Shown piece by piece: positions 1,908 to 64,000 of a stretch of 64,000 nucleotides of DNA. The notes below the pieces were generated by a model. That model ran no database searches and was not told the DNA's origin. It was given only the letters and a program-made list of their open reading frames with translations. This stretch comes from Adhaeribacter pallidiroseus (GTDB taxonomy: Bacteria > Bacteroidota > Bacteroidia > Cytophagales > Hymenobacteraceae). The first letter of the stretch is position 1. Every line of letters begins with the position of its first letter. The stretch is from NCBI RefSeq assembly GCF_003340495.1, contig NZ_QASA01000001.1, positions 3,596,001 through 3,660,000 of the forward strand, given 5' to 3'. A program made the position numbers and the translations under genes.

Positions 1908-2648
1908 TTGCTTAAAAAAAATTTAAAAATAGCCTTGAAAAGTGCACCCGTAAGATGTGTCGCGGTAGACGATGAACCATTAGCCTTAGATATTATAACG
2001 GCTTACGTGGCCCGCTTGCCCGCGATTACCTTAATTCAAACGTTTGATGATGCCCTGGCGGCTTCGGAATTTTTACGAACGACAGAGATTGATTTGTTAT
2101 TTGTGGATATTAACATGCCGGATATATCCGGGATTGATCTGGTGCGATCCCTGGCAATTAAACCATTAATTATTTTTACCACCGCTTATAAAAACTTTGC
2201 CTACGAAGGTTTTCAATTGGAAGCAGTAGATTATTTATTAAAGCCAATTGCCTTTGAACCATTCGTGAAAGCCGTAAACAAAGCCATTGATTTTCTGGAA
2301 TTAAAAAATAAACCCAAGTCGGAGCCCGAAGAAAGCTTGTACGTGCATTCGGAATACCGGCTGCTAAAAATAAATTTGCGCGACATAGAATACATCGAAA
2401 GCCTGGAAGATTACATAAAAATTCATGTAACCGGCGCCCGTCCTATTCTGACTTTGCTTTCCATGAAAAAGGTTCTGGAAAAGCTACCCGACGCAAAATT
2501 TAAAAGAATTCACCGCAGTTTTATTGTGCCTATGGCCCAGGTTACCGCTATTCAAAACCGAAAAGCTATTTTGCTATCGGGTAAAGAATTGCCCATCAGC
2601 GATTCCTACACCGGCTTTATCCAGGATTGGCACCAAACAATTTTATAA
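1908..2648 (+). CDS. LytTR-family response regulator
   Basis: A receiver domain (acidic pair DDEP near the N-terminus, phospho-acceptor Asp67 in VDINMP, switch region TTAY, and Lys in the LLKPI motif) is followed by a C-terminal LytTR DNA-binding domain (IEYIESLEDYIKIH through FKRIHRSFIVP). It pairs with the LytS-type kinase just upstream. There is no ATG start: the longest frame begins at TTG 1908, and a second TTG at 1935 would leave only two residues before APVRCVAVDDEP, closer to usual family length. A copy of the recurring AT motif lies at 1919-1929, between the two candidates, which slightly favours 1935. The product probably acts as a dimeric transcription activator; its targets are unknown. 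Confidence 0.92.
   Translation: MLKKNLKIALKSAPVRCVAVDDEPLALDIITAYVARLPAITLIQTFDDALAASEFLRTTEIDLLFVDINMPDISGIDLVRSLAIKPLIIFTTAYKNFAYEGFQLEAVDYLLKPIAFEPFVKAVNKAIDFLELKNKPKSEPEESLYVHSEYRLLKINLRDIEYIESLEDYIKIHVTGARPILTLLSMKKVLEKLPDAKFKRIHRSFIVPMAQVTAIQNRKAILLSGKELPISDSYTGFIQDWHQTIL
1919..1929. repeat. Dispersed 11-bp motif TTTTTAAATTT (family entry, this copy and 27 others)
   Basis: Exact copies in either orientation start at 1919, 2712, 4005, 5794, 7383, 7887, 11052, 12886, 16469, 18127, 18382, 18552, 23891, 24148, 25039, 26353, 27405, 33178, 34730, 42132, 43547, 45029, 46169, 52571, 55435, 57453, 61070 and 62770. Most are in spacers, both upstream and downstream of genes; four are inside genes (7383, 18127, 23891, 62770). 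An 11-bp all-A/T word should occur well under once by chance in this length at about 57% A+T. Function unknown. Confidence 0.8.
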
Positions 2649-2720
2649 GATGCAGTTATTTTTAAAATTACCAGAGCTTATTGTTATCCATAAGATTAGG
2701 CTTAACCTTATTTTTTAAAT

Positions 2721-3443
2721 TTAATTTTCGGCACGTGGCCACTCCAGTATTAAAATAATGGCGTTATTACTTAAAGCTTCCAGTTCTACTTGGGGGGTAT
2801 CCCACAGGGATAACCCGTCTTTTTCGTGCAATAACCGGCCTTCGGCTTCAAAAGCGCCAGCCAGTACAAAAGCAAAGAAAAACTGCTGATTATCCTCTAA
2901 AGGGTAAGTAATTTCTTGTCGCCCGGCAAACCGCCCCAAGCTTAACCTGAATTTATAATCAGGAACATTAGGTACGGAGTTGCCGGGTATTATTTCGGTA
3001 AGGGGGTTGCCGGGATCGTCGAGCGTGAAAGGTATCAGGTTCGTAAAAACTTCTGCAATCCCATTTTTCGCGCGTAGCCGAACTTGTAAGAAACAGATAT
3101 TATCCTGGGCATACGGATTTACCAGCTGAAAGGAATAAGGCGCCGGTGCGGTTAGGATTAGTACCTGACCAACTTCTACGGGCATCAGGGCATTGGCGGG
3201 AGTACTTAGATTTACAGCCCCGGTTACCGGAATAATCAGGATGTGCGAGGCCTGGTCCAGGTGATAGGTTAAATTTTGGGATCCAGCCAAGGTTTCTTCG
3301 TTTACCAGGTACAAATCTCCGTAAGGTTGTTTATGTTCCTGATAAAAATCTTGGTAGTTAAATGTGCTAAACCGTTGCAGGTGGGGCGTTTGCCAGTGGC
3401 CACGTTGGTCAGCGAGGTAAATTTTACCGGGTATTTGCTTCAT
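2721..3443 (-). CDS. Pirin-like bicupin protein
   Basis: 240 residues. The N-terminal half resembles the pirin/YhhW cupin (RGHWQT near the start, then a HILIIPVTG strand and a VEVGQVLILTA strand). The C-terminal half matches the second cupin of quercetinase-type pirins (FFFAFVLAGAFEAEGRLL, then DGLSLWDT). The His/Glu metal ligands usual in the first pirin cupin are not evident, so an oxygenase function is doubtful and a regulatory or binding role is equally possible. It follows a 170-residue unknown gene by 4 bp, so the two are probably cotranscribed. It converges with the LytTR gene. Confidence 0.65.
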   Translation of the reverse strand: MKQIPGKIYLADQRGHWQTPHLQRFSTFNYQDFYQEHKQPYGDLYLVNEETLAGSQNLTYHLDQASHILIIPVTGAVNLSTPANALMPVEVGQVLILTAPAPYSFQLVNPYAQDNICFLQVRLRAKNGIAEVFTNLIPFTLDDPGNPLTEIIPGNSVPNVPDYKFRLSLGRFAGRQEITYPLEDNQQFFFAFVLAGAFEAEGRLLHEKDGLSLWDTPQVELEALSNNAIILILEWPRAEN

Positions 3444-3967: not shown

Positions 3968-4001
3968 AAAGCGTTAAAGCCGATCTTTTAACGCTTTTTT
4001 A
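3968..4001 (-). terminator. Intrinsic terminator after the intradiol dioxygenase gene
   Basis: Perfect 11-bp inverted repeat (3968-3978 with 3987-3997, stem AAAGCGTTAAA, 8-nt loop). On the minus strand it is followed by a T-rich run, and it sits 17 bp past the dioxygenase stop. It separates that gene from the downstream pair. Confidence 0.75.
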
Positions 4002-4013
4002 AAATTTTTAAAT

Positions 4014-4751
4014 TTAAGCAGCCACGTTTAGTTTAATGGCCAGTTTAAAGCCATTGGTGGTATCGCCGGTAACGGTGGCTATTTCCACGCCCGCACTATC
4101 GTCGCTAAACACATTATCTTTAGCATTGTAGGTATAGCCATTGAGCCCTTTTTTATAACCATTTACCGCCGCAACGGCACTGTTACTACCTTCCGGAAAA
4201 GCAATTTGCGTTACTTTTAAGGAGGTACCGCTGGCATTGTAGATATGCACGTGCATGTGAGTGGCCCGGCCGTTGTACCATCCCGGAAAAATAGTGGTAA
4301 AAGTAACCAGCCCGTTGGCGTCGGTAACCTGCCGGCCGCGTAAAAAATGGACCGCTTGCAGATTAGTAGATTGCATTCCTGAACCACCGTATTCCGAATA
4401 ATTGCCGTCGGCATCGCAGTGCCAAATGTCCACGATGGCGTTCGCCAACCCCGCGCAGCTATTATTTATATTGCCAATCGTAATTTTCGCCGTTAGTTTA
4501 TAACCAGTGCGGCCATCGGTAATATCGCTGCGCACGTAAGAAGCCGGACTTTTGGTCGGGAAAGGGCCTTCTGTTTCGGAGGGAGCTACCGTGCAAGTGC
4601 CGGAATCAGTACCGGTAGTAGTGTCGGCTCCGGTTCCGGAAGTGTTGGTAGTGGGAGTAACGGTATCGGCCTCTTTATCGCAGGCCGATAAAACTACCGG
4701 AGTAGCAATGGTGCCGAGGAGCAAACTCTTTAAAAAGCTTTTTCTTTCCAT
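4014..4751 (-). CDS. Exported intradiol ring-cleavage dioxygenase (lipoprotein)
   Basis: 245 residues. The N-terminus has a signal segment ending in a lipobox (LSAC, Cys24) and then a Thr/Gly-rich linker (about 26-55). The catalytic domain carries the non-haem Fe(III) ligand pattern of protocatechuate/catechol intradiol dioxygenases: Tyr118 in DADGNYS, Tyr159 in PGWYNGR, His165 and His167 in HMHVH. Family members cleave ortho-dihydroxy aromatics between the two hydroxyl groups. The lipoprotein signal places this copy in the periplasm or outer membrane, unlike the cytoplasmic catabolic enzymes. No other beta-ketoadipate pathway gene is nearby, so degradation of plant or humic phenolics outside the cytoplasm is an inference. 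Confidence 0.88.
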   Translation of the reverse strand: MERKSFLKSLLLGTIATPVVLSACDKEADTVTPTTNTSGTGADTTTGTDSGTCTVAPSETEGPFPTKSPASYVRSDITDGRTGYKLTAKITIGNINNSCAGLANAIVDIWHCDADGNYSEYGGSGMQSTNLQAVHFLRGRQVTDANGLVTFTTIFPGWYNGRATHMHVHIYNASGTSLKVTQIAFPEGSNSAVAAVNGYKKGLNGYTYNAKDNVFSDDSAGVEIATVTGDTTNGFKLAIKLNVAA

Positions 4752-5434: not shown

Positions 5435-5858
5435 TTTTTTACCCCTTTCTATTTTTAGTAATCTGGTTGGTTTAATTGATTAATGCAATTTTAGTTAAAG
5501 TTTCAAATAAGGCGATACACTATTTTACAAAAGGATAGTTCCCCCATTTATGAATAAACAATATTCAATCTTTATCTAAAATAAACAATACTTTTTACCC
5601 ATTTTAAAGGTATATATTCTTGATTATTTTCAAATTTACCAACCATTTTATATATTTGAATTTTTAGATATTTACTAAAAAAGTTTCTGCCTAAGCGGAT
5701 TGCCAAACCAAGCGAACTGTGCAGTTTATATACAAAATATCCTATATTAAAATATTTACCGATACCCCAGTACAGGCTGGGTTTAGCAGATAAAAATTTA
5801 AAAATTATCTTACTCCGACAAAGCTACACGACGCTTACGAACTACTTTAACCTGGTAT
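5435..5858. other. AT-rich intergenic region
   Basis: 424 bp with no ORF, RNA gene or hairpin that I can support. One copy of the recurring AT motif is at 5794-5804. Confidence 0.3.
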
Positions 5859-6672: not shown

Positions 6673-7833
6673 TTAAGATTTCCGGGCACCTTTGGCTACC
6701 GACTCCATTAAACCACGCATGTAGCCAATCGCGAATAAATTACCCAAAGTCATATAGCCCGGGCGGGTGTTCTCTTCGCCGGCCATGGTGGGCACGTGGT
6801 CCGGGCGAATAGCGCCTTTAAAGCCGATTTCGTAGTAAGCTTTCATAGATTCGTACATATCAATCTGGCCTTCGTCGTGGAAAGTTTCGGTGAACTTGGT
6901 GCTGGGCAGTTTGCCGCTTAAATCCTGTACGTTCCGGAAATGCACAAAATGAATTTTACCGGCTTTGCCCCAGCGCCGCACCAGCGACGGAATATCGGTA
7001 CCCATTAAAGCAAAATTGCCCTGGCACAAGGTTACGCCGTTAAAATCGCTCGGCATAATTTTCAACATCCGGTCGAAGCTTTCGACGGTGTTCATAATCC
7101 GGGAAATACCTTGGATGCTATGCACCTGCGGATCATCGGGGTGCAAAGCCAGCTTCATTTCAATCTTTTCGGCTTCGGGTACTACGGCTTTCAGGAAGTA
7201 CTCCAGGTTCTTCCACATGGTTTCTTTGGTTACTTCGCCGTATTTGGTGAGTGGTTTATTCTTGATGTCGTCGTAATCAAAAGCGGTTACCAGCGCGCCA
7301 CCCCGGGCGGGCCGGTCCATTTGCGTACGGGCCCAGCTAATTACCGGCATCCAGTTGTAGCAAATTACGTTGACACCCGCTTTTTTTAAATTTTTCATGA
7401 ACGTAATGAAGTTGGCAATTTCTTCATCGCGCCCATCTAAACCCAACTTGGTTTTTTCGCCCAAGGACGGTGGACCTTCTACTACCGTGTAATTTAAACC
7501 TACTTTTTTCCAGGCTTCTTTTACGCCGGCAATAGCTTGATATTCCCAAGGTTTTACGTTCGTTAAGCCGGTTAAACGGGTATCTATGCCGGCTACCGCC
7601 CCTAAAGCATCCATTTGCTTCGCCAGTTCTATTAATTGCTTGTTGGCCTCAATACCCGCAAAATAAGCGGTACTCATTTCCATGCCGGCGTCTTTAGCCA
7701 TGGATTGTAAAGCCCCATTCGCTTTGGCATTTTCCGTTACCGAATGAGCTACAGCAGTGCTAATGCCGCCTACCGAAAGTGCGGCAGCCAGCGAAGCACT
7801 TTTTTTAATAAAATCCCTACGATTTTCTTTCAT
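6673..7833 (-). CDS. Tat-exported mannonate dehydratase-like (UxuA family) protein, paralog A
   Basis: 386 residues. Residues 1-30 are a twin-arginine signal (NRRDFIKKSA, then a hydrophobic Ala-rich stretch). The rest is a TIM barrel of the UxuA family, recognised by CYNWMPVISWART, ALHPDDP, LCQGN, HFVHFRN, FHDEGQIDMY and RPDH. The metal and active-site residues expected from UxuA are present: His231, Cys270, His298, Asp345-His346. E. coli UxuA is cytoplasmic and dehydrates D-mannonate to 2-keto-3-deoxygluconate. A Tat signal implies a folded metalloenzyme in the periplasm, so the substrate may be another sugar acid. Last gene of a three-paralog run downstream of susCD. Very similar to paralog C. 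Confidence 0.85.
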   Translation of the reverse strand: MKENRRDFIKKSASLAAALSVGGISTAVAHSVTENAKANGALQSMAKDAGMEMSTAYFAGIEANKQLIELAKQMDALGAVAGIDTRLTGLTNVKPWEYQAIAGVKEAWKKVGLNYTVVEGPPSLGEKTKLGLDGRDEEIANFITFMKNLKKAGVNVICYNWMPVISWARTQMDRPARGGALVTAFDYDDIKNKPLTKYGEVTKETMWKNLEYFLKAVVPEAEKIEMKLALHPDDPQVHSIQGISRIMNTVESFDRMLKIMPSDFNGVTLCQGNFALMGTDIPSLVRRWGKAGKIHFVHFRNVQDLSGKLPSTKFTETFHDEGQIDMYESMKAYYEIGFKGAIRPDHVPTMAGEENTRPGYMTLGNLFAIGYMRGLMESVAKGARKS

Positions 7834-8021
7834 GATGTTTATTCAACTAGTATTTACTTGCTTTTGAGATGGTTATTCTTGGTAGAAAATTTAAAAATGC
7901 CATTTGCTTTGCAGAGGAATCAGATTTCAACAGTTTACTTTAAAAAAGACACCTCGCATCCTTTAAAGCATGCATTTTACGAAATTATCCGTATTTAAGC
8001 AATTATAAATTAATCTAATAA

Positions 8022-10910: not shown

Positions 10911-11104
10911 TTTTTTAGCTTTTTAAATAAAGCTTAACTAGTAGGTTGACCAATTTTGAAAGCGATATCGTTTCAATAACTTATCATTTAGGAGGAGCCT
11001 TTTTTGATACGTAGCTAACTAGTTTCCTCCTGAATGGCAGCTTCTTATATTTTTTTAAATTTTGATTGCTATGCAATAAATAGCTTGGGCCAGGTGCAAG
11101 ATTT

Positions 11105-12875: not shown

Positions 12876-13360
12876 GATTTTTCAAAAATTTAAAAAATGG
12901 AAGAAAATTACCGATCCGGTGTTACAACCGCACACTTAAGTTAATGCCGTAGGTGCGGGTAGCAGGCAAACCAAAGTTTTCCAGGCCTTGGGCATTGCCG
13001 CTGCTGTAATTCGATTCCGGATCAATGTTTTTGGTAGTGCGGTACAAGATCAGCAGGTTCCGGCCCACGAAGGAGATATTCGCCGATTGGAAAGGGGTTT
13101 TCGCCAGCAACGTGGAAGGCAGCGTGTAGCCAATGTTAATGGAACGCAGTTTAATAAAATCGGCTTTCTCCACAAATTCGCTGGTAATGGTGTTCCAGAG
13201 GCCTTTGTAGTAGGTTTCGGCGGGTACTACTTTCGTAAACGCTTCTCCTTTTTCGTTCACGCCGTTTACCGTTACGCCGGTTTCGCGCACGTTATTTTCG
13301 ACGGTGCGTTTATCTAAACCAAACTGGGTACCGTATGCGCTGGTAGCGGAGTAAATACTA

Positions 13361-13366: not shown

Positions 13367-14857
13367 AGCGGCTATCGAGCAAGAAACCGGCGGTAAAATT
13401 TTTAAAAGTAAAATCGTTGTTTAAGCCTACGGCCAAGGGCGGCACGCCTTTCCCTAAAGGAACCACGGGGCCGGCAATGGGTAAACCGTTCGAGCTGTTG
13501 TAAATAATCTGGCCGCTGGCATTCCGGGAATACGTGCTGCCGGCAATCTGGCCGAAAGGCTGGCCCTGGTAATGCGTGATCCAGCCGTTTTCGGTGCGGG
13601 TAGTAGCGCCGGGCAAACGCAAGCTGGTTAAACCTAACTCGGGAGCAATGCTGATTACTTCGTTTTTATTGTAAGCCGTATTTAAGGTTACGTTCCACGA
13701 CAACCCGTTTTCGGAAGTTACCGGCGAGCCGGTTAACATTAATTCTATGCCCCGGTTTTTCATTTTACCCACGTTTAATGCCACCGCCGTGTACCCACTG
13801 GATTGCGGTAAAGTCGCGTTTACAATGTCGTTGGTGGTGGTGCGATCGTACAGCGTAATATCTACCCCCAGCCGATTATTGAAAATTTTAGTTTCTAAAC
13901 CTAGTTCCGTAGTGGTGGAAGTATAAGGGGTAAGCAGTGTGGGTAAAGTAGGGCTGGTTACGTTCATTAAGGTTTGGCCTAAATGCTGCTGCGACTGCGC
14001 CGAAAACGTTTGGGTAATGGCGTAAGCCGTAGGAGCGCCGCCCCCTACCTGGGCCCACGAAGTTCTTACTTTGGCGTAATCGAGCCAGGCGGGTTTAGAA
14101 GCCCAAGCATCGGAAGCCACAAAACTTAACCCAACCGATGGGTAAAACAAGCTGTTGTTCTTAGGATCTAAAGTGGAGAACCAATCGTTGCGGCCGGTTA
14201 AAGTCAGGTACAAATAATTATTAAAATCAATATCCGCGGAAGCAAACAAAGAGTTGATGCCTACCTGGCTGTAATTAATGCCAAAATTCTGGCTGCGGCC
14301 GTTGGCGATAAAATATTGGAAAGGCCGGTTAAACTGTCCGCTGGACAGGTTAATGCCGTCGAACGTATTGCGCATTTGGTTGCCCCCGGCAAACACGTTT
14401 ACCGAAAAGGCCCCAACGTCTTTCCGGAATCCGATGGTTCCTTCCAGGTTGGTTTCGGATTGCAGGCTTTGGTCGGTGGTCATGGAGCCGGGCTGGTTAA
14501 ACGCTAAACCGGTGGGCTGAATGGCAAAACCGTCGAAGTTCACTTGGTCGATGCCGAAGCGGGCGCGGGCGTAAAACGCGTCGGTAATGTTATAAGTAGT
14601 ACTGAACGAACCAATAAACCGTTTTTTGGTATCGCCGTTCCGGACTTTGTTGATGGCAAAATACGGATTGGTTGCATACTCATAATCGCTCCATTTAAAC
14701 TCGTTGCCGTTCGGTAAATAACCCGGCGATAAGGTTTCGATGGGAATGTTGGAAGCCAGCAGTTGCGCTCCGGTGTTCGGGTTTAATTGAAAATCCGCGA
14801 GGTACGTACGGTTTTTTACGTCTTCGATGTTATACTGGGCATTGCCTTCGAACACAA

Positions 14858-14864: not shown

Positions 14865-16563
14865 GCCAGCGTCGCACTGGCACTCAGGTTAAACGTTTTA
14901 ATGTTCATATCGTTGTGCGGTACAATGGCCTTGTTATCGAGGTTAGAGGCCGAAAAGCGGAACCGGGCAATTTCGTTGCCGCCGCTAAGGGCCAGCGTAT
15001 TCACGAAGTTGGTACCGGTTTGGTAGAAATTTTTAAAATTATTCTTCTGCGCCGAATAAGGCCGGGTCTGACCATCGGGCTGAATAATGGGCGAACCATC
15101 TAACCGGGCTCCCCAGGACATGCGACCGTTCGAAATGGCCTGGGCCTGGGTTGTGGGCGCTGCACCTAGTGAACCGGAGCCGTATTGGTATTGCCAATCG
15201 GTTAAGTTAATGGCTTGCTGAAAGGTAAAGTTAGTGTTATACTCTACACCTAATCCTTTTTGCGCTTTTCCGGATTTTGTGGTGATTAAAATAACGCCGT
15301 TGGCGGCCCGGGCCCCGTACAAAGCCGCCGCCGTACCGCCTTTTAAAACCGAAATACTTTCAATATCGTCGGGATTAATACTGGCTAAACCATCGCCCCG
15401 GTCGATGCCGCCAAAGGTACCCGCGGCGCCTTGGTTATTGTTGGTAATCGGCATGCCGTTAACCACGTACAACGGCTGGTTTTCGCCGTTTAAAGAACCG
15501 TTCCCCCGGATAACAATACGGCTGGAGCCACCTGGTCCACCTGATGTACCAGATGCCGTAACGCCCGCAACCCGGCCGGCCAAAGCATTTCCCACGTTTA
15601 TTTCGCGGGCCTGGGTCAGTTTTTCGCCGCCTACTTCCGATACCGCATAGGTTAAGGCTTTCTTCTCTCTTTTAATACCTAAGGCCGTTACCACTACTTC
15701 GTCCAGGGTTTGGGTATTGTCGAGTAACGTCACATCAATGGTGGCGCTGCCGCTAAAAGCTACTTCTTTGGTAGTATAGCCAATAAAGGAAAAAACGAGA
15801 GTACCATTATCCGCAGGAGCATTGATGGTGTAAGAGCCATCTGCCCCGGAAGCAGTACCGGTAGTAGTGCCTTTTACCAAAACGGTAACCCCGGGAAGGC
15901 CTTCGCCGGTAGCAGCAGTTACTTTACCCGTAATAGTGGCGGCAGCTGCGGGCTTCTTGGCAATGACCAACCTGGAACCAATCTGCTCGGGAGCAGGAGC
16001 AAAACTACTGGCTTTTAATTTTTTAAGTACCACTTCCCCGCCAACCGGTTCAAAATCAATGCGAAGCGGTGTGAGTAAATCAGTGAGTACGTGCGCTAAT
16101 TTTTTGTTCGAAGCTATTACCGTTACTTTGCGGCCCGCATCAATAATTTGAGTACTGTAAATAAAATGAATCCCACTACGATCTTCGATTTCCCTTAAGA
16201 TTACGTTTAACTCCGTATTTTCCATTTGAATAGAAATCTCCCGGTTAAGCATTTCTTTCGCTTTATTTTCTTCGGCGAAGGTTATTTGCGGTTGTAGTAA
16301 AAAAAAGGCTACTACAACAATTAAAGCTGTTCGGCAACACAACAGCCATAGTCTTGGTTTGGTAAGTAGAATTTCCATAGTGGACACGTTTGGTTAAGAT
16401 TATATTGGTTTAAGGTGAGGCAAACTAACAGCAGATTCGGCAGGATAAAATGCATCGGGGACCAAGAAAAATTTAAAAAAACAAACGCCTTAGCCGTAGC
16501 TTTTGGCCTATTTACGAGTAAGTTTTAACGCATAAGCATCTTCTTTCTCATTTATAATTTGCT

Positions 16564-17723: not shown

Positions 17724-18302
17724 CTAATAACCGGGGATGATGAGCAGCAGCGGAACAACAAAATCTTTGAGAAAGATTTTTAAATGCTTTAACGTTTTGG
17801 TGATATGAAATTCCACGGCCTTATCGGTAAGTTGCAGATCGTGGGCTATTTCTTTATTCGAGAGATTTTGAAACCGGCTTTTTTCAAATACCTGCCGGGT
17901 TTTGGCCGATAATAAAGCCAGCGCGTTTTTTAAAGTAAGGTTTAACTCACTAGTTAAAACACTTTCTTCGGTGTAGTTAGCGGCAACCACGGAACGGTCG
18001 GCGCGGGACTGATATTTGTTCCGGACTAATTGCGCGTGGTAATAATTGATGATGGCGTATTTAACAGCCGTAAAAAGATAGGCTTCCAGGCTGCTGGTAA
18101 TGGTAAGGGTTGTACGCTTCAGCCATAAATTTAAAAATATTTCCTGTACCAATTCTTCGGCTACTTCTTTTTCGCCGGTTTTACGATATGCAACCTGGTA
18201 TAATTTAGCCCAATACTTCTCGTAAATTACCTGAAATGCATCGGCCGATTCATTCCGTAAACCATCTAAAAGTCTGTTATCTCTTAAACTGTTCTGGTTC
18301 AA
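17724..18302 (-). CDS. ECF RNA polymerase sigma-70 factor (FecI/Bacteroidota type)
   Basis: 192 residues. Sigma region 2 (YEKYWAKLYQVAYRKTGE, EELVQEIFLNLW) and region 4 helix-turn-helix (NLSNKEIAHDLQLTDKAVEF). The C-terminus ends in a short hydrophobic tail (FVVPLLLIIPGY) found in some Bacteroidota ECF factors. An in-frame stop lies eight codons upstream and there is no early ATG, so TTG at 18302 is the only plausible start. It should direct RNA polymerase to susCD and perhaps the dehydratase genes when released by FecR. Confidence 0.95.
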   Translation of the reverse strand: MNQNSLRDNRLLDGLRNESADAFQVIYEKYWAKLYQVAYRKTGEKEVAEELVQEIFLNLWLKRTTLTITSSLEAYLFTAVKYAIINYYHAQLVRNKYQSRADRSVVAANYTEESVLTSELNLTLKNALALLSAKTRQVFEKSRFQNLSNKEIAHDLQLTDKAVEFHITKTLKHLKIFLKDFVVPLLLIIPGY

Positions 18303-18332: not shown

Positions 18333-18608
18333 ATTTATAATCATATCAAAAAAAAGAGAATTACTTTTGAACAATTTTAAATTTTTAAATTTATTAATGT
18401 ACTACACTATTTAAAATAAAAATATGACAAGACAAAGCTATTTGTTAATCAGAATTGTTTAAGCAGGTTAAAAAAATAGAAATTTTAATTTTATCTTCTT
18501 CAACTTTAATCTTTTTGTACCGGATAGCTGGATTATCTTTGGAGTCGCTCTTTTTTAAATTTATTTTGGTACTTATGAGTTAGCGAAGCACTCTAAGTAC
18601 TTTTGTGC

Positions 18609-21493: not shown

Positions 21494-21929
21494 GTACGGG
21501 TTTTAATAAGTAAGAAATTAAAAATGAAGTTTAAAAATAACCTTTATTCCTTTCTGCTAAGGCCCTGTCGATAAAAAAGTGTTGTAAATAGATAAAAAAG
21601 TATTAGCTCCAACGACAGCGTTATTTTTACCCTTATTTAAATTTTTTAGTTCTCCCGGTCATTTTTTTTCTTGTAGGATTGTACTTTGGAGTCGGTTCCC
21701 TTTTTAAGCCATCGTGCTAGCTAACCTAACTCCGTCAAGTCTGTTTTACGGCAAGACATACCGGGATTCTTCCTAACATGATAATGGCTGTGCCAACCAA
21801 AACTCCCTTGACTGCTGCTTTTTCCAAAGCTATGGATTTGCAGTAGGTACTGCTTTTTGTGCTATAGAAACATTTTTTTTGTTAGCGATAGATGCAGCCG
21901 GAATGCTTGTGTGTTGCCGATTAATTATT
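21494..21929. other. Intergenic region upstream of the PQQ dehydrogenase
   Basis: 436 bp, AT-rich. Two near-identical direct repeats (GATAAAAAAGT, near 21570 and 21592) occur about 80-100 bp upstream of the start. No ORF, RNA gene or clear promoter was recognised. Confidence 0.3.
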
Positions 21930-26346: not shown

Positions 26347-26382
26347 TATAAATTTTTAAATTTTACTCTGGTTCAGGCACTA

Positions 26383-43537: not shown

Positions 43538-43565
43538 AGCGGTTTAAAATTTAAAAAAAATACAG

Positions 43566-43856: not shown

Positions 43857-44975
43857 ATGACGCAGTCTGAACCCTTTTATAAAAAAAGCACGCTTATTTT
43901 ACTCGGAATAATTCTTTTCGTGTATGTGCTGTATACCCTGGCCGATATGCTCGTGCCCATTGCTTTTTCGGTGCTACTGGCCATTTTGCTGAACCCGTTG
44001 TATACCCGCATCATAAAATGGCGGGTTCCGAAAGTGTTGGCCATTATTTTAACTTTACTTATCGCGATTATTATACTGGCGGGTTTATTATATTTTTTAT
44101 CTTCCCAGATTATTCAGTTCGGCGACATGGCGCCTTTGCTCACCCAAAAGTTCAACCAGATTTCTACTAATTTGCAAACTTGGGTGGAAAGCACTTTTGG
44201 CATAACCCTGGAGAAACAATTACAGCTGTTAAGAGACGCAGCCAGTGGCGGCAAAGCCTTGGCGGGCCGTACGGTTTCGGGTGTATTAGGTATATTCGGT
44301 ATTCTGTTCTTAATTCCGGTTTATATTTTCTTGTTGCTGTTTTATAAGCCGCTTATTTTAAATTTTATCTTTGAAGCTTTTGCCCGAGAAAATTCTGGCC
44401 CTATTGCCGATATTTTGTCGGAAACAAAGTCCGCGATTCAGAGCTACATCGTGGGTTTGTTAATTGAAGCGTCGATAGTAGCGGTTTTAAATTCTATTGC
44501 CCTTACTATTTTGGGCGTGCAATACGGCATTTTATTAGGAGTAATTGGGGCCATCCTTAATTTGATTCCGTACATCGGTGGTTTAATTGCCATTATTTTA
44601 CCGGTGTTAATGGCTACCTTAACCAAAGATGGCTATACTACCCAATTACTTATTATTGCCGCATACGGGCTCATTCAATTTATCGACAACAATATTCTGG
44701 TGCCGCGCATTGTATCGTCTAAAGTAAAGATCAATGCGTTGGCTTCTATCCTGGCCGTGTTGCTGGGCGGTGCCTTGTGGGGATTTTCAGGTATGTTTTT
44801 ATCGATTCCCTTTATTGCCGTACTAAAAATTATCTTCGATCATATTGATTCTTTAAAACCTTGGGGCCGATTACTCGGCGACCAGATTCCAGATTATTAC
44901 GGAAAAATGCAGGTACAAACTACGCATCAAAAAGAAGTAAAAACCCCGCAAAAAGTCGAAGAGCAAAAATCATAA
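43857..44975 (+). CDS. AI-2E family transporter (YdiK/TqsA/PerM-like permease)
   Basis: 372 residues with about eight membrane helices. Family pattern: paired N-terminal helices (LILLGIILFVYVLYTLADML, PIAFSVLLAILLNPLY), a periplasmic loop (about 90-140), then the conserved ILGVQYGILLGVIGAILNLIPYIGG and QFIDNNILVPRIV. Substrates differ across the family (AI-2 export, sodium/proton exchange), so no substrate is assigned. Hydrophilic tail. Followed by a strong terminator. Confidence 0.92.
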   Translation: MTQSEPFYKKSTLILLGIILFVYVLYTLADMLVPIAFSVLLAILLNPLYTRIIKWRVPKVLAIILTLLIAIIILAGLLYFLSSQIIQFGDMAPLLTQKFNQISTNLQTWVESTFGITLEKQLQLLRDAASGGKALAGRTVSGVLGIFGILFLIPVYIFLLLFYKPLILNFIFEAFARENSGPIADILSETKSAIQSYIVGLLIEASIVAVLNSIALTILGVQYGILLGVIGAILNLIPYIGGLIAIILPVLMATLTKDGYTTQLLIIAAYGLIQFIDNNILVPRIVSSKVKINALASILAVLLGGALWGFSGMFLSIPFIAVLKIIFDHIDSLKPWGRLLGDQIPDYYGKMQVQTTHQKEVKTPQKVEEQKS

Positions 44976-45046
44976 AATTGCAATAAGTACGGCCTTTGGC
45001 TCCGGAAAGAAGTTACTAGCTTGCTTATTTTTTAAATTTGTAGCCT

Positions 45047-45229: not shown

Positions 45230-46150
45230 GTGGATTACAAAGACTATTATAAAATCCTGGAGGTAGATAAAAAAGCCTCGAAAGCAGAAATTAAAAAACA
45301 ATACAAAAAACTCGCGCGCAAATACCACCCCGATGTAAACCCCGGCAATAAAGAAGCCGAGGAAAAATTTAAAGCCATTAACGAAGCGCACGAAGTGCTC
45401 TCCGATGATACTAAACGGCAAAAATACAATACCCTCGGGGCTGATTGGCAACGCTACCAGCAAACCGGCGGCGGAACGGGTAGTTTTGATTGGGGCCAGT
45501 ATGCCCAGAGTGGCAATGCCGGCGGTGGCCGCTATACCTACCAAACAAACGACGAAAGCAGCGATTTTTCCGATTTTTTCAGTTCTATTTTCGGTGATAT
45601 GGGTCGGAGCAGTCGCCGGAGCAGCGTGCGCTCTAAAGGCCAGGATTTCTCCGCCGAACTCACCGTATTTTTGGAAGAAGCCTTCCACGGCGTGAAAAAA
45701 ACTTTTACCCTGAACGATAAAAACCTGCGCATCAATATTAAACCCGGAGTAGAAGATGGTCAGAAAATTAGGCTAAAAGGTAACGGTGGTCCGGGTCGTA
45801 ATGGCAGTGAGCCCGGCGATTTAATCATTACTTTACGCGTACCACCCGATCCCCGCTTTACCCGCCAGGGCAATGACTTATATGTAGAGGCCCAAGTACC
45901 TGTTTACCGGGCGGCGCTGGGCGGTGATTTTTACGTAGATACCCTGGATGGCCAGCTAAAATTAAAAATTAAGCCCGAAACCAAAAATGGCACTTTGCTG
46001 CGGCTCAAAGGCAAAGGTTTTCCGGTGTATAATCAACCGGGGCCATCCGGCGACTTGTACGTAAAAGTAGTGCTGCAATTACCCGAGGCCCTCACTAACA
46101 AAGAGAAAGAGTTGTTTCAGCAGCTAGCGCAGCTACGAAACGATAAGTGA
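45230..46150 (+). CDS. cbpA: CbpA-type DnaJ co-chaperone
   Basis: 306 residues starting at GTG 45230. N-terminal J domain with HPD at residues 33-35 (YHPDVNPG), a Gly/Ser-rich linker with DFSDFFSSIFGDMG, then two C-terminal DnaJ substrate-binding domains and no zinc finger, which defines the CbpA (type II) class. It stimulates DnaK ATPase. In many bacteria cbpM follows cbpA; here only a CbpM-like fragment remains directly downstream. Confidence 0.92.
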   Translation: MDYKDYYKILEVDKKASKAEIKKQYKKLARKYHPDVNPGNKEAEEKFKAINEAHEVLSDDTKRQKYNTLGADWQRYQQTGGGTGSFDWGQYAQSGNAGGGRYTYQTNDESSDFSDFFSSIFGDMGRSSRRSSVRSKGQDFSAELTVFLEEAFHGVKKTFTLNDKNLRINIKPGVEDGQKIRLKGNGGPGRNGSEPGDLIITLRVPPDPRFTRQGNDLYVEAQVPVYRAALGGDFYVDTLDGQLKLKIKPETKNGTLLRLKGKGFPVYNQPGPSGDLYVKVVLQLPEALTNKEKELFQQLAQLRNDK

Positions 46151-46181
46151 TTTTTGGAAAATACTATTTTTTTAAATTTGA

Positions 46182-47079: not shown

Positions 47080-48309
47080 TTAAATATTTACTGAATTGCC
47101 GGCAGCATACGCCTTTAAATACGCGTACCGTTCGGTGAGTTGCCCGTTTTTAGAAATAGTAGCCCGGGTTAAGATTCCTTCGGCGTCGTTGTTTAGTAAA
47201 TGCGGAAATACCTCATCGATGAGCTGGCGGCCAAAATCGCGGGAAGCACTGCGGGGCAACTCACAAGGTAAATTATCAACCGCCATCACGGTGATATTCT
47301 CTGGTTTGCTGAAAGCGGGTTCCAGTTCCTGGGTAAAGGGATTGTAGTCGTAAACCGGTTCCGGAATACTGCTGGCCCGTTTGGTACACGGAATAGACCC
47401 TTCTACATCGCAGGTTATATCGGCAATGGTCTTAATTTTAAAATTAGATCGCTGCATATCGGCTGCGGTAAATAAACGCGGCGCGGCCGGATTCCAGTAA
47501 GCGCCGGCCATTAAAATATCGGTAACCGGAGTAAATTTATCGAAAGTAGACTCGTATTCGTGGGGGTTCTGGTAAAAATCCACGTTGTCCCACACGCGGC
47601 CGTCGCGGCGGCGGTTATAATCCGAGGAATGCAGCTGGGTATAAACCGGCTCGGTAAACTTTAAGTACAAGTAATCATACACACTCACCTTCCGGATCCC
47701 CATTTTATCCAGTACTTCCATAATGCCGTGGGCTACGCGACCCCCTCCGGTTACCGCAATTTTAATCGGCGGCAAGGCTTTTACTTTAAAATATTCTTCC
47801 TCCATATCTTCAATATCCAGACACAGATGCGCCGGGTGCAGGTCGAAAATTTTAAATTTTTTACCATAAGCCATTATCCCATTGTAAGCCCCCACGATGC
47901 CGGCGTAGCGCCCAAAAGCTACCGTTCGCTCGCCTTTTACGTTGGTAAGCGTTTCGTAATCAATCAAGGTAATGTTTTTTTGCAGAATGGCCCGGAGCAA
48001 GGCCTGGTTATGCGGCTGCTCTTTAATGGTGTGCGAGAAAAAGAAATACGTTTTATTGGGTATTAACTCCGCTAGAGGTACTTCCTTTACGCCCATTAAC
48101 ACATCACACTGGCGCATATCTTCCCGTACTTCTATGTCTAAATCACGGTATTCCTGGTCGTGGTAGCAACGCACCGTACTCGACTGCACCACTATTTTTA
48201 ATTCCGGAAAAACCGTCATGGCTTCCTGACATTTTAGCGGCGTTAGGGGTACCCGTTTATCGGGTGGCACCTTGCCTTCCCGGATTATTCCTACAGTTAG
48301 TTTACTCAT
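47080..48309 (-). CDS. Saccharopine dehydrogenase / alanine dehydrogenase-like NAD(P)-dependent oxidoreductase
   Basis: 409 residues. The N-terminal AlaDH/PNT-type domain (GIIREGKVPPDKRVPLTP, MGVKEVPLAELIPNKTYFFF) and the Rossmann motif VTGGGRVAHG match lysine-ketoglutarate reductase/saccharopine dehydrogenase (LYS1-like) more than alanine dehydrogenase. TVAFGRYAGIVGAYNG and ADITCDVEGSIPCT are further family blocks. Predicted role is lysine or related amino-acid metabolism in the cytoplasm, with substrate unproven. Divergent from gcvP. Confidence 0.8.
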   Translation of the reverse strand: MSKLTVGIIREGKVPPDKRVPLTPLKCQEAMTVFPELKIVVQSSTVRCYHDQEYRDLDIEVREDMRQCDVLMGVKEVPLAELIPNKTYFFFSHTIKEQPHNQALLRAILQKNITLIDYETLTNVKGERTVAFGRYAGIVGAYNGIMAYGKKFKIFDLHPAHLCLDIEDMEEEYFKVKALPPIKIAVTGGGRVAHGIMEVLDKMGIRKVSVYDYLYLKFTEPVYTQLHSSDYNRRRDGRVWDNVDFYQNPHEYESTFDKFTPVTDILMAGAYWNPAAPRLFTAADMQRSNFKIKTIADITCDVEGSIPCTKRASSIPEPVYDYNPFTQELEPAFSKPENITVMAVDNLPCELPRSASRDFGRQLIDEVFPHLLNNDAEGILTRATISKNGQLTERYAYLKAYAAGNSVNI

Positions 48310-51618: not shown

Positions 51619-51890
51619 TTATTTCGGTTTATAAAGGCCACCCTGTCATACTGACACATCTTCCTTTTAGAATATTTACTAGACCCTGAATTATGTAAAA
51701 CGCAGGGGTGAAAAAATTATTATAATCGGCTTAAACAGGAGAATATCTTGCAAAAAGTACAAGATATTAACGTAAAAACCGTTTAGTGTTTAGCAAGGTT
51801 AATACTTCGAAAAATCACATTATTTTTAAAAATTTGGTACTAAAATTGCCATGTTTATACTACTAACAATTAAAAATTATATAAGTTAAG

Positions 51891-52475: not shown

Positions 52476-52621
52476 TAAATACCTGAACCTAAATACATTT
52501 TTAGCAGATATATCTGGTTGCGGCAATGGTTCCTTAGTGCCTGATCGTTAACTCGGATAATTACTACGGTTTTTTAAATTTATCTGGTATTTTTACTAAT
52601 AACGTTAGTGGTAAATCAGCT

Positions 52622-55427: not shown

Positions 55428-55482
55428 CGGGTGATTTTTAAATTTTCGAGGCTTCAGCCAGATTAATTTTAAAAATCACCCG
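55428..55482. terminator. Inverted repeat between converging lipoprotein and ABC genes
   Basis: Perfect 15-bp stem CGGGTGATTTTTAAA (55428-55442) with 55468-55482, 25-nt loop. It could end transcripts from both sides but lacks a clear U tract; an AT-motif copy lies inside the left arm. Confidence 0.5.
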
Positions 55483-57448: not shown

Positions 57449-57795
57449 GTTAAAATTTAAAAAAATAATATAGATCGCCTATCTGCGCTCCGGAAAGTAG
57501 TATTTACTGAAGTTAAAAGGCTTAACCTGTACGCAACATTTGTCAAAACGATTTATTCATCTGCCGTGCGTCTCCCCTACTTCATGTTTCTTCTTCTTCA
57601 TAGGGCTATTGATAATATTTTAAAGAGGCCTAAATATTTAAACCAGAATTTAAACTAATTGTTATTACCTGAACATCGGGTTCGCTTCTGCCGTAAGCAC
57701 GGGATGGTAACCGGTAGCTTTTAGAAGATTAACAAACAATAAGCTGGTCTGCTAAAAAATTTACATATAATTAAGTAAAAATTAAAAACTCCTGT

Positions 57796-61028: not shown

Positions 61029-61226
61029 ATTATCGGTTTAAGCACTCCCCTTAATTGTTTTCCATCTAAAAATTTAAAAAAAGCAGCCGCCAAAAGCCAT
61101 TTTGCTCGAACAGCCAGACTAAAATTTAAAATTTTCAGCAATTAACCATTGATAATTAAGTACGCATCAGGTTAAATACTTGTAATCTGTAACCTGCACC
61201 CTTTAACCTGTAACTTTTAACTCAGC

Positions 61227-64000
61227 ATGATATCAGAAGTATTTATAAGAAGGCCCGTTACCGCTATCGTTATATCCATCGTAATTCTACTGGTAGGAAC
61301 GCTGGCAATTTTAAATTTACCCATCAGCCAATACCCTAATATATCACCGCCGGTGGTTTCGATTACCGGTAACTACACGGGTGCCGATGCGCAAACCGTA
61401 GAGCAAACCGTAACCACGCCCGTAGAAACCCAGGTAAACGGTACGCCCGGTATGACCTATTTGTCGTCGAACAGTACCAGCACCGGGCAAATGTCCATGG
61501 ACGTAAACTTTGACGTGGGCACCGATGTAGACATTGCGACCCTGGACGTGCAAAACCGGGTAAGTATTGCCGAACCCCGCCTACCGGAAGAAGTGCGCCG
61601 CTTGGGTTTAACCGTTCGGAAGCGGAACCCCACCATTATGATGGTAATTACCTTTTATTCCCCTAAAGGTACCCACGACATTAAATTCCTGGATAACTAC
61701 ACCAACATTTACATCCGCGACGCTATTTTACGGGTACCGGGCGTAGGGGATATCAACACGGTAGGGGAAGAATTTAGCATGCGCGTGTGGTTACAGCCTG
61801 ATAAATTGTCGCAATTAGGCGTAGCGCCTACCGAAGTAGCCGCGGCCTTACGGGAACAAAACGTACAAGTAGCCGCTGGTTCGGTGGGCAGCGCTCCGCA
61901 GTATTCTACCCAGGCCTTTGAATATCCGTTAACCGTAAACGGGCGCTTAACTGGTCAGGAACAATTTGAAAATATTATTGTGCGTACCCGGCCCGAAGAT
62001 GGCTCCGTGGTTTACCTGCGCGATGTCGCCCGTTTAGAATTAGGCAGCTTTGGTTACACCCGGCAAGCTTTTATTAATGGCCAACCGGCTACTTTCTTGT
62101 TAGTATACCAGTCGCCGGGTAGTAACGCGTTGGATACTGCCGAAGGTGTTTACAAAGCCTTGGCTAACATGAAAAAAACCTTTCCGGCCGATATGGATTA
62201 CAAAGTTTCTTTCGAAACCGTTTCGGTGGTAGAAGTGTCGATTGAGGAAGTAATTCATACCTTAAGCGAAGCTTTATTGCTGGTAATTCTGGTAGTGTTC
62301 TTGTTCCTGCAAAACTGGCGGGCCACGCTGGTACCTATCTTGGCGATTCCGGTTTCGATTGTGGGTACGTTTATTTTCTTTATCCCGCTCGGGTTTACCA
62401 TTAACACGCTTACTTTATTTGGTTTCGTACTGGCCATTGGTATTGTGGTGGATGATGCCATTGTGGTGGTAGAGGCTGTACAGCATTACATCGACCACGA
62501 GCGGCTGTCGGCGAAAGAAGCTACCCGCAAAGCCATGAAAGATATTACGGCGCCGGTTATTGCTATTGCCTTAATATTAGCGGCGGTATTTATTCCGGTA
62601 GGTTTTATTCCGGGTTTAGTAGGCCGTTTGTACCAGCAATTCGCGATTACCATTGCCATTTCGGTATTAATCTCGGCTTTTGTGGCGCTAACCTTAACGC
62701 CGGCGCTTTGCTCGCTGATGTTGCGCCCCATGAACCTGGATAAAAATTCGCGGGGCCTTAACAAGCTATTTTTTAAATTTAACGAATGGTTCGCGCGGGT
62801 AACCAATGCGTACTCCAATGGGGTGCGCCGCAGCATAAAAGCGGCACCTTTAGTATTAATTTTACTGGTTTGCGTGTATGCCGGTACTTTAGGTTTATTC
62901 CGCACCAAGCCAACCGGCTTTATTCCTACCGAAGACGAAGGCCGTTTGTTCGTGACTTTTGAGCTCCCCCAAGCTGCTTCGAGTAACCGGACCATCGCGG
63001 TTTTAAAAGAAATTTCGGAACACTTACGGACTACGCCGGGCGTGAACAATTACTCGGCCATTGCGGGCTTAAACGTGCTGAACTTTTCCATTAAATCCAA
63101 CAGCGGTACTATTTTCGTGCAGCTTAAACCTTGGGCCGACCGGAAAGAAGCGTCGCAGCAGCTTTTTGCCATTGTGGGTACGTTGCAGCAAAAATTTGCC
63201 ACCGTTAAAGATGCGAATATTGTGGTAGTGCCCCCACCCGCCGTGCCGGGTTTAGGACGCACGGGGGGTTTTAGCTTTATCTTGCAGCAACGCGAAAGTA
63301 CCGATGATATCAAAGCTTTTGAAGGCATCGTGAACAACTTTTTAGCCGAAGTCCGAAAACGGCCCGAAATTACGGGTGCCTTCTCGTTCTTTACGGCCCG
63401 TACGCCGGGTTACCAGTTGCAAGTAGACCGCGAAAAAGTTAAAAAGTTAGGCGTTTCTCTTACGGATGTTTTCTCCACCATGTCCACGTTTATGGGTAGC
63501 CAGTACGTGAACGATTTTACCATGTATGGCCGCAATTTTAGAGTAGTAGCCCAAGCCGATACTTCTTTCCGGGACGATATCCGGGACTTAAGTCAGTATT
63601 ACGTAAAAAACCAGCGAGGAGAGTCGGTACCGCTTAGCGCAGTCGTTTCGCACCAGGTTACCGAAAGTGCCCCGGTAGTATCGCATTATAACTTGTTTCG
63701 GTCGACGGAAATAAACGGTAACCCGGCGCCGGGTTATAGCAGTGGCCAGGCGATTGCGGCTTTGCAAGAAGTGGCGGCCAAAGTACTGCCCGCGGGTTAT
63801 GGTTACGAGTTTTCCGGCCTGAGCCGCGAAGAATTATCGTCGGGGAATACCACTATATTCATTTTTGCCTTATCCATTACCCTGGTGTTTTTGTTGCTAG
63901 CGGCTTTGTACGAAAGTTGGTCGGTGCCGTTCTCGGTATTGCTGGCCGTGCCTTTAGGCGCTTTTGGGGCAATAGTCGCGTTAATTTTCTTGCCTAAGCT
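61227..64000 (+). CDS. RND multidrug efflux permease (AcrB/HAE1 family), 3' end beyond the window
   Basis: About 924 of an expected 1040-1060 residues are present; the frame stays open to the right edge. Start ATG 61227: ISEVFIRRPVTAIVISIVIL, the usual first helix. Porter-domain motifs (NGTPGMTYLSSNSTS), proton-relay Asp409-Asp410 in GIVVDDAIVVVEAV, and TM7 onwards (FRTKPTGFIPTEDEGRLFV). A proton-driven pump for hydrophobic drugs or bile-type compounds, with no substrate evident. Fourth gene of the TetR-controlled operon. Confidence 0.96.
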   Translation, partial: MISEVFIRRPVTAIVISIVILLVGTLAILNLPISQYPNISPPVVSITGNYTGADAQTVEQTVTTPVETQVNGTPGMTYLSSNSTSTGQMSMDVNFDVGTDVDIATLDVQNRVSIAEPRLPEEVRRLGLTVRKRNPTIMMVITFYSPKGTHDIKFLDNYTNIYIRDAILRVPGVGDINTVGEEFSMRVWLQPDKLSQLGVAPTEVAAALREQNVQVAAGSVGSAPQYSTQAFEYPLTVNGRLTGQEQFENIIVRTRPEDGSVVYLRDVARLELGSFGYTRQAFINGQPATFLLVYQSPGSNALDTAEGVYKALANMKKTFPADMDYKVSFETVSVVEVSIEEVIHTLSEALLLVILVVFLFLQNWRATLVPILAIPVSIVGTFIFFIPLGFTINTLTLFGFVLAIGIVVDDAIVVVEAVQHYIDHERLSAKEATRKAMKDITAPVIAIALILAAVFIPVGFIPGLVGRLYQQFAITIAISVLISAFVALTLTPALCSLMLRPMNLDKNSRGLNKLFFKFNEWFARVTNAYSNGVRRSIKAAPLVLILLVCVYAGTLGLFRTKPTGFIPTEDEGRLFVTFELPQAASSNRTIAVLKEISEHLRTTPGVNNYSAIAGLNVLNFSIKSNSGTIFVQLKPWADRKEASQQLFAIVGTLQQKFATVKDANIVVVPPPAVPGLGRTGGFSFILQQRESTDDIKAFEGIVNNFLAEVRKRPEITGAFSFFTARTPGYQLQVDREKVKKLGVSLTDVFSTMSTFMGSQYVNDFTMYGRNFRVVAQADTSFRDDIRDLSQYYVKNQRGESVPLSAVVSHQVTESAPVVSHYNLFRSTEINGNPAPGYSSGQAIAALQEVAAKVLPAGYGYEFSGLSREELSSGNTTIFIFALSITLVFLLLAALYESWSVPFSVLLAVPLGAFGAIVALIFLPK

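What the first reader, a model, noticed from the sequence alone, without database searches (positions are those of the whole stretch)
1919..62780. An 11-bp AT motif, TTTTTAAATTT, repeated at least 28 times, mostly between genes
Found by reading: exact copies at the positions given in the repeat entry, far above a chance expectation well below one for an 11-bp A/T word in 64 kb. Copies lie before starts (12886 before susD, 27405 before the SDR, 57453 before the ABC gene), after stops (43547, 45029, 46169) and in convergent spacers (2712), in both orientations, so a plain promoter or terminator part does not explain them. A binding site for a nucleoid or chromosome-structuring protein, an uptake-type tag, or a mutationally favoured word are all open.
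Basis: seen in the sequence. Interest (0 to 1): 0.72.

Follow-up and report, generated by a model that had tools for sequence, protein, structure and literature searches.

The report
A/T-block tag in gene gaps
In two soil bacteria of the genus Adhaeribacter the chromosome, but hardly the plasmids, carries thousands of copies of a short directional A/T-only word, roughly one in each gap between genes, which looks like a recognition tag for a protein not yet known.

Summary
In detail: 28 exact TTTTTAAATTT in the window (1.3 expected), 2146 in the genome. The 11-mer is part of a 12-15-bp element, A4-5 T3 A5-7, bounded at once by DNA of ordinary composition. It is directional: A4T3A6 has 1201 copies, its mirror 285. 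Of 394 other genomes sampled from the phylum none has more than 53 (A. swui not drawn). In the genus only this genome and A. swui are rich; two sisters show a faint polarised form. Most internal substitutions abolish the excess. Spacers of 40-700 bp hold 0.4-1.0 copies on average, nearly independent of length, and copies avoid each other, unlike other A/T tracts. Plasmids are about 21- and 10-fold poorer. Coding copies exceed synonymous shuffles fourfold. Composition, mutation, promoter and terminator readings are contradicted. I conclude it is a chromosome-specific, sequence-recognised DNA tag kept by selection or biased recombination, most like uptake sequences (DUS/USS); a gene-boundary nucleoid-protein site is almost as likely. 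The reader protein is unknown; no uptake or binding was tested.

The parts
1914..1929 (-). block element with exact 11-mer
   Evidence: orthologous element in G004
2495..2505 (-). block element, in CDS
2711..2722 (+). block element with exact 11-mer, convergent spacer
3995..4015 (+). five-block element with exact 11-mer; overlaps an element in G004
5792..5804 (-). block element with exact 11-mer
7381..7395 (+). block element with exact 11-mer, in CDS
7886..7897 (-). block element with exact 11-mer
11050..11063 (+). block element with exact 11-mer, inside a dispersed repeat
12884..12897 (-). block element with exact 11-mer, before the SusD-like gene
13395..13407 (-). block element (T5 middle), in CDS
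15027..15038 (-). block element (T5 middle), in CDS
16467..16481 (-). block element with exact 11-mer
18127..18137 (-). exact 11-mer in CDS; relatives differ by substitutions
18375..18392 (+). five-block element with exact 11-mer
18551..18562 (+). block element with exact 11-mer
21636..21647 (+). block element (mirror-type run lengths)
23891..23903 (+). block element with exact 11-mer, in CDS
24148..24160 (+). block element with exact 11-mer
24668..24678 (+). block element, in CDS
25037..25051 (+). block element with exact 11-mer
26350..26364 (+). four-block element with exact 11-mer
27404..27417 (+). block element with exact 11-mer; overlaps an element in G004
28578..28588 (-). block element
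29041..29052 (+). block element (mirror-type run lengths)
29493..29505 (.). four-block element
31449..31468 (.). five-block element
31507..31521 (+). four-block element; overlaps an element in G004
33176..33190 (-). block element with exact 11-mer
34432..34443 (-). block element (mirror-type run lengths)
34719..34732 (-). block element with exact 11-mer
42130..42143 (-). block element with exact 11-mer
43056..43066 (-). block element, in CDS
43543..43560 (-). four-block element with exact 11-mer
44356..44366 (+). block element, in CDS
45028..45039 (+). block element with exact 11-mer
45363..45373 (-). block element (mirror-type run lengths), in CDS
46167..46179 (+). block element with exact 11-mer
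47846..47862 (.). four-block element, in CDS
51823..51835 (+). block element (A5 middle); aligned G004 spacer is 10 bases shorter here
52570..52581 (+). block element with exact 11-mer
55435..55446 (+). block element with exact 11-mer
57452..57465 (-). block element with exact 11-mer
61068..61082 (-). block element with exact 11-mer; same place in G004 with a 4-bp middle
61121..61135 (.). four-block element
62769..62780 (+). exact 11-mer in CDS; relatives differ by substitutions

Best explanation
The copies are one family of directional 12-15-bp double-stranded DNA elements (A4-5 T3 A5-7, with a T3-to-T5 dialect in A. swui), maintained on the chromosome at roughly one per intergenic spacer by recognition of the word. 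I put about 0.85 on that general class (sequence-recognised and maintained, not a by-product of composition or mutation); this is inferred from statistics, and the recognising protein has not been seen. My most likely specific mechanism is a self-DNA tag of the uptake-sequence kind: cells preferentially take up or recombine conspecific fragments that carry the word, so alleles with the word spread (molecular drive and/or selection for conspecific DNA). Copies then fill permissive DNA, turn over, space themselves out because a second copy on the same fragment gains little, and stay rare in DNA that does not travel this way, such as plasmids. Shown here: word, polarity, specificity, spacing, chromosome bias, lineage and dialect. 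Inferred: a reader protein and a role in uptake or recombination.
For: Copy number and uniqueness: A4T3A6 1201 copies, the other 394 of 395 sampled phylum genomes at most 53. Polarity against the mirror word 1201:285 and 723:276. Specificity: AAAATTTAAAAA 44-fold, G/C substitutions 0-6-fold, A/T substitutions 0-8-fold except at block edges (13- and 9-fold; in G004 26- and 22-fold, its dialect); the outermost bases of the 14-mer are loose. Spacing: intergenic pairs within 300 bp 27 against 73.0 +- 8.6 (G000) and 38 against 82.0 +- 9.9 (G004), while other A/T tracts of 9 bp or more are not spaced out (2341 against 2181; 1252 against 1197). Coding copies exceed synonymous shuffles, 43 against 9.7; three aligned coding copies show no gaps against relatives. 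133 of 352 elements (38%) are coding, near the 35% cited for N. gonorrhoeae and below the 65% for H. influenzae (PMC1939737). Plasmids 0.30 against 6.24 elements per 10 kb (G000) and 0.64 against 6.57 (G004). No overall orientation to genes and no significant replichore bias. Turnover with equal density at saturated divergence. Dialects. Uptake sequences share many of these: thousands of copies and dialects (PMC3630211, passages), about 1-kb and relatively even spacing, under-representation in newly acquired segments (PMC7811141, passages), absence from recently acquired genes, permissive core locations (PMC2397512, passages). Riemerella columbina, also Bacteroidota, prefers its own DNA; its authors list abundant k-mers as untested candidates (PMC7965970, passages).
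Against: The avoidance is mainly within a spacer: pairs in different spacers do not avoid each other, and coding-intergenic pairs do so only in G000 (8 against 20 within 300 bp), not in G004 (20 against 17); a fragment-length effect should cross gene edges. Neisserial DUS are described as highly conserved and as seldom made by point mutation (PMC2397512); here sites turn over. One paper holds uptake sequences not as evenly spaced as a compaction role would ask (PMC1939737), so even spacing is not their privilege. One region low in exact copies (L104, 1.0 per 10 kb) carries clpX-, clpP- and spoT-type genes, so 'absent only from foreign DNA' is not clean. Shared occupancy of syntenic spacers is barely above chance (36 against 32.0 +- 1.9). 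An A/T-only uptake word would be without precedent known to me (recalled).
Confidence: 0.42

Rival explanations
1. Gene-boundary or nucleoid element: a chromosome-structuring or insulating protein, reading the narrow minor groove of the A/T blocks, needs about one site in each intergenic spacer.
For: Elements per spacer nearly independent of length, 0.46 at 40-80 bp and 1.02 at 400-700 bp, variance/mean 0.51-0.65 up to 700 bp; 219 of 352 elements intergenic; convergent spacers under 120 bp occupied 11 of 20 and 9 of 15 against tandem 15 of 55 and 21 of 44 (counts rebuilt from the fractions; pooled p 0.046).
Against: Plasmid genes have gaps too but few elements; the single-base cliff is sharper than I recall for nucleoid proteins; HU is one copy in 7 of 8 genus genomes, rich and poor alike, and AT-hook matches stay under cut-off in all 8; high turnover of sites; under-dispersion in spacers under 250 bp is shared by other A/T tracts in G000.
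Confidence: 0.35
2. HIP1-like by-product: an orphan methyltransferase or repair bias makes the word accumulate without a function of its own.
For: HIP1 is the nearest example of a lineage-specific hyper-abundant word; methyltransferase-directed repair is one proposed origin of such words (PMC4390886, passages). GATC-containing words also differ between these species.
Against: A repair bias does not predict mutual avoidance in spacers or scarcity on plasmids of the same cell; the element is directional, not a palindrome.
Confidence: 0.1
3. Transcription or RNA signal: promoter, terminator or RNA-processing site.
For: Peaks just after stops and near starts; within 20 bp after stops the gene strand more often reads AAATTTAAAAA-like (31 of 45, G000 and G004 pooled), perhaps because TAA stops overlap the word; a hairpin directly upstream is twice as common as at other T runs, though rare.
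Against: Overall both orientations are equal: 60:63 after stops, 52:55 before starts in G000; hairpin in 6 of 355 elements against 92 of 11301 other T runs; the G required by TAnnTTTG (motif recalled) follows in 7 of 205, with no TTG peak upstream; divergent spacers are occupied too.
Confidence: 0.08
4. Composition or mutational run-length bias makes A/T blocks.
For: Many related block words are raised, and W-only 11-mers are commoner in G000 and G004, 37 and 36 per kb against 21-32.
Against: Congeners with equal intergenic GC lack it; Markov orders 1-5 fail; peak in run-length space and polarity; two-block tracts not raised; spacing and plasmids.
Confidence: 0.05

Closest known systems
DNA uptake sequences DUS (Neisseriaceae) and USS (Pasteurellaceae)
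   Same: Short word in up to thousands of copies, in genes and gaps, permissive places, relatively even spacing, dialects among relatives, rare in newly acquired DNA.
   Different: Here the word is A/T only, without a GC-containing core; host is Bacteroidota; avoidance is per intergenic spacer; sites turn over, while DUS are called highly conserved; no uptake shown.
HIP1 (GCGATCGC) of cyanobacteria
   Same: Lineage-specific, hyper-abundant, function uncertain.
   Different: HIP1 is a GC-rich palindrome linked to methyltransferases; here a directional A/T word with avoidance between copies.
A-tract clusters / phased A-tracts of bacterial nucleoids
   Same: Built of A and T runs, may act through DNA shape.
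   Different: Elements are single and avoid each other, and composition falls to background right outside 13-15 bp. Helical phasing with other A-tracts was not tested; the flank profile has weak unassessed maxima at -24, -34 and -46.
Chi and KOPS/AIMS oriented words
   Same: Short over-represented chromosomal words.
   Different: No significant strand bias along the chromosome.

Membership tests
DUS/USS uptake sequences | Promotes uptake or transformation of DNA that carries it | not testable with these tools
   needs an assay
DUS/USS uptake sequences | Hundreds to thousands of copies, far above chance | tested here: met
   2146 exact 11-mers; 1201 A4T3A6
DUS/USS uptake sequences | Strict core, mismatches strongly reduced | tested here: met
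   block-edge shifts and end positions tolerated
DUS/USS uptake sequences | Relatively even spacing | tested here: met
   but mainly within spacers
DUS/USS uptake sequences | Rare in recently acquired DNA | tested here: inconclusive
   plasmids poor, their age unknown; chromosomal islands not resolved, a region with core-type genes is poor in exact copies
DUS/USS uptake sequences | Dialects follow the phylogeny | tested here: inconclusive
   two dialects in two species, a faint form in two sisters; too few species, one gene tree disagrees
DUS/USS uptake sequences | Competence machinery with a DNA receptor | not tested
HIP1-type words | Palindromic word | tested here: not met
   word is directional
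HIP1-type words | Cognate methyltransferase | not tested
   not searched
Intrinsic terminators | GC-rich hairpin before a T run, oriented with the gene | tested here: not met
   6 of 355; overall orientation equal
Bacteroidota promoter -7/-33 | TAnnTTTG with TTG upstream (recalled) | tested here: not met
   G in 7 of 205; no TTG peak
KOPS/Chi-type oriented words | Strand bias by replichore | tested here: not met
   stretches with positive GC skew 32:39, negative 57:46, p 0.22; whole genome 1078:1068
A-tract clusters | Several A-tracts clustered together | tested here: not met
   elements avoid each other; sharp single island
A-tract clusters | Phasing at about 10-11 bp | not tested
   no phasing statistic was computed

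The most novel reading that the evidence does not exclude
A self-DNA recognition tag in Bacteroidota made only of A and T, read by DNA shape and polarity, that marks the chromosome at roughly one copy per gene gap, leaves plasmids unmarked, and has begun to split into dialects between sister species.
Probability: 0.35. Interest if true: 0.9.

Novelty: new variant of a known kind. Interest (0 to 1): 0.74.

Why it matters
Hyper-abundant recognised words are known in few lineages. One that is A/T only, directional, kept at roughly one per intergenic gap and scarce on plasmids in the same cell gives a clean natural contrast (four related species, two dialects, a mirror-word control) to ask how such tags arise. 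If it is an uptake tag it would bear on why some Bacteroidota prefer their own DNA; if it is a chromatin site it would be a per-gap bacterial punctuation mark.

Tried and rejected
Base composition: five congeners with intergenic GC 0.331-0.368 have 0-3 intergenic copies in their samples (G007 not sampled). Low-order Markov models. Equal excess of all A/T words. Promoter and terminator parts. Replichore-oriented word. HU copy number and AT-hook proteins as correlates: none. Insertion of a ready-made short element: coding copies at 7383, 18127 and 62770 align without gaps to relatives, but for gaps between genes insertion is not excluded; at 51822 the G004 spacer lacks 10 bases between well-matching flanks. 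Foreign-island explanation of the poor region at 420-460 kb: no transposase or conjugation family among the 10 proteins scanned. Naming the host through its own plasmid: no match. Tree: gcvP alone grouped G000 with G006 (91/94) inside a four-species clade of support 100 (8 genomes); 15 genes of those four species group G000 with G004 (100), with 881, 496 and 274 sites for the three groupings. Literature: 10 searches, listings partly capped; nothing on this word or on uptake words in Adhaeribacter was in the listings seen. Passages of six papers were read, no whole text.
Full report
WHAT WAS GIVEN AND WHETHER IT HOLDS. The 28 exact copies are there (mean 1.30 and maximum 6 in 100 dinucleotide shuffles). 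The whole genome (G000, 6,425,974 bases, 3 contigs) has 1078 + 1068 copies against 622 + 615 of the reversed word. The window is therefore not special: at the genome's density it would hold about 21.

WHAT THE UNIT IS. In a sample of 464 kb (the window and 20 stretches of 20 kb), the table of maximal A-run, T-run, A-run lengths between genes has a separate peak at A4-5 T3 A5-7 (for example 4,3,6: 19; 5,3,6: 16), not a smooth decline. Tracts of three or more A/T blocks, each at least 3 bp, number 196, against 36-110 expected by Markov models of order 1-5; two-block tracts are not in excess (388 against 436-585), and total lengths have a second mode at 13-14 bp (list). Just outside the core the A+T content is back at background (0.57 at -8, 0.58 at +10). 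So the 11-mer is a sub-word of a 12-15-bp island. substitutes each position of AAAATTTAAAAA: the consensus is 44-fold over an order-2 model (98 against 2.23), G/C changes are 0-6-fold, and A/T changes are 0-8-fold except at block edges (13-fold and 9-fold), which shift a run length; in G004 these edge shifts stay at 26- and 22-fold. In the 14-mer the first and last positions are loose.

POLARITY. Short-then-long against long-then-short blocks: 102:9 (T3), 26:2 (T4), 12:0 (T5) in G000; 34:10, 17:6, 16:1 in G004; single digits, about 1:1, in five other congeners. Genome-wide A4T3A6 against its mirror: 1201:285 in G000, 723:276 in G004, 83:39 in G003, 73:21 in G006, and 15:13, 11:9, 13:11, 8:5 in G005, G001, G002, G007. 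A3T5A5: 213:42 in G000, 646:79 in G004, 43:11 in G003, 27:17 in G006: two dialects. Polarity in G003 and G006 is significant for A4T3A6 (p 8e-5 and 7e-8, copies taken as independent).

WHO HAS IT. G004 is Adhaeribacter swui by an exact 20-kb plasmid match and two equal plasmid lengths, and G003 A. radiodurans by an equal plasmid length; G000 is an unnamed congener. Among 59 genomes (G000 and 58 relatives) the 11-mer is 1587 in G004, 306 and 274 in G003 and G006 (reversed word 256 and 231), 52-95 in the other four congeners, and 0-185 elsewhere. Of 395 genomes drawn from the phylum, G000 included, the 13-mer count is 1201 in G000 and at most 53 in any other listed (the congeners were not in that draw). 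Intergenic GC is alike: 0.348 and 0.339 in the rich genomes, 0.331-0.368 in five poor ones, with 121 and 40 against 0-3 intergenic copies in the samples. A 15-gene alignment of four species joins G000 with G004 (support 100), third-position identity 0.60; gcvP alone disagreed.

WHERE IT SITS. My gene calls are mechanical (ORFs of at least 80 aa, codon score), not annotation. In 564 kb of the G000 chromosome, 219 of 352 elements are intergenic (1.85 per kb) and 133 coding (0.30 per kb). Coding copies exceed synonymous-codon shuffles (43 against 9.7 +- 3.5 in G000; 5 against 1.0 in G004); in the other five the numbers are 0-4 against 0.7-2.0, highest in the faintly polarised G006 (4 against 1.2). 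Aligned coding copies at 7383, 18127 and 62770 show no gaps against relatives. Overall there is no orientation relative to genes, except in the first 20 bp after stops, where the gene strand reads A-first (AAATTTAAAAA-like) in 31 of 45. Stretches of positive and negative GC skew give 32:39 and 57:46 forward:reverse copies (p 0.22).

ROUGHLY ONE PER GAP. Elements per spacer in G000 are 0.46, 0.38, 0.57, 0.83, 1.02, 1.18 for spacers of 40-80, 80-150, 150-250, 250-400, 400-700 and over 700 bp; variance/mean is 0.51-0.65 up to 700 bp and 1.0 above; in G004 the means are 0.45, 0.56, 1.0, 0.88, 1.02, 0.75 with variance/mean 0.51-0.75. Intergenic pairs within 300 bp: 27 against 73.0 +- 8.6 in G000, 38 against 82.0 +- 9.9 in G004. 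Control: other A/T tracts of 9 bp or more in the same spacers scale with length (9-15 per kb in G000) and are slightly clustered at short range; but in G000 spacers under 250 bp they are under-dispersed too (0.65-0.88), so the contrast in dispersion rests on spacers of 250-700 bp (0.57 and 0.51 against 1.36 and 1.40) (all). The avoidance is within spacers; between spacers it is not seen, and between coding and intergenic copies it is seen in G000 only. Tandem spacers of 15-60 bp are seldom occupied (0.14 and 0.26). A mutational account would hardly give this pattern.

CHROMOSOME RATHER THAN PLASMIDS. Plasmids of G000 (166,047 of 169,193 bases read): 0 exact copies and 5 elements, 0.30 per 10 kb against 6.24 on the chromosome sample. 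Plasmids of G004 (141,098 of 257,801 bases read): 2 exact and 9 elements, 0.64 against 6.57 per 10 kb. Per intergenic kb the figures are 0.04 against 1.84 and 0.13 against 2.45 at similar intergenic GC, but my caller leaves 44-48% of the G000 plasmid sequence uncalled, so the whole-sequence ratios, about 21 and 10, are safer. Plasmids may be newcomers; this weakens but does not remove the inference. Against a simple 'foreign DNA lacks it' rule, the region at 420-460 kb is poor in exact copies (1.0 and 0.5 per 10 kb), yet L104 carries clpX-, clpP- and spoT-type genes.

TURNOVER. In 77 syntenic spacer pairs of G000 and G004, 36 have an element in both, 17 only in G000, 10 only in G004, 14 in neither (32.0 +- 1.9 expected in both). 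18 of 61 G000 elements overlap a G004 element in the spacer alignment against 5.9% of random positions, at 51% spacer identity; aligners favour matching A/T tracts, so this is an upper bound. Density is kept while single sites come and go, as drive or genome-level selection would give. Neisserial DUS are instead described as highly conserved (PMC2397512).

WHAT IT IS NOT. Terminator: a hairpin just upstream in 6 of 355. Promoter: the base after the word is G in 7 of 205, no TTG peak. A-tract cluster: elements avoid each other; phasing was not tested. A longer repeat: no conserved flank. Insertion of the short element itself is excluded for three coding copies only; between genes it stays possible (51822).

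READING. I infer a protein that reads the word on double-stranded DNA. Uptake sequences are the closest known set of properties (PMC3630211, PMC7811141, PMC2397512, PMC1939737, passages only), and self-preference in DNA uptake is reported in Riemerella columbina without an established tag (PMC7965970, passages). The per-spacer rule speaks for a gene-boundary site. I commit to the uptake/recombination tag at 0.42, gene-boundary site 0.35. No reader protein is proposed: HU copy number does not follow the word and no AT-hook match passed its cut-off. Membership in DUS/USS is not claimed, because the defining uptake test was not possible.

Noticed in passing
window 10684-11260: A dispersed intergenic repeat in two halves (10684-10920, 10984-11260) with dozens of 68-91% identical copies in G000, G004, G003 and G006; in most copies aligned through that point an A/T tract of differing sequence lies at the same place, before GCTATGCAACAAA or a near match.
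   Followed up: partly
window 55523-55576: A roughly 50-bp dispersed repeat with many 77-94% identical copies in G000, G004, G003 and G006; other dispersed repeats of about 50 bp appear in L004 11825-11882 and, as an inverted pair, L020 3299-3350 and 3511-3566.
   Followed up: no
window 51585-51620 and 57801-57836: Two 36-bp perfect palindromes, each equal to its own reverse complement.
   Followed up: partly
G000 and G004 intergenic samples: TGATCA (3-fold and 5-fold) and, in G004, AGATCT (4-fold) are commoner than in the pooled other congeners; a restriction-modification difference is possible.
   Followed up: no
G000 C1 420-460 kb (L104, L115): Exact word at 1.0 and 0.5 per 10 kb although core-type genes lie in L104.
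   Followed up: partly
G004 sample: A. swui has multi-block tracts up to 28 bp (A4T3A5T4A5T3A4), a longer form than the longest (22 bp) in the G000 list.
   Followed up: no
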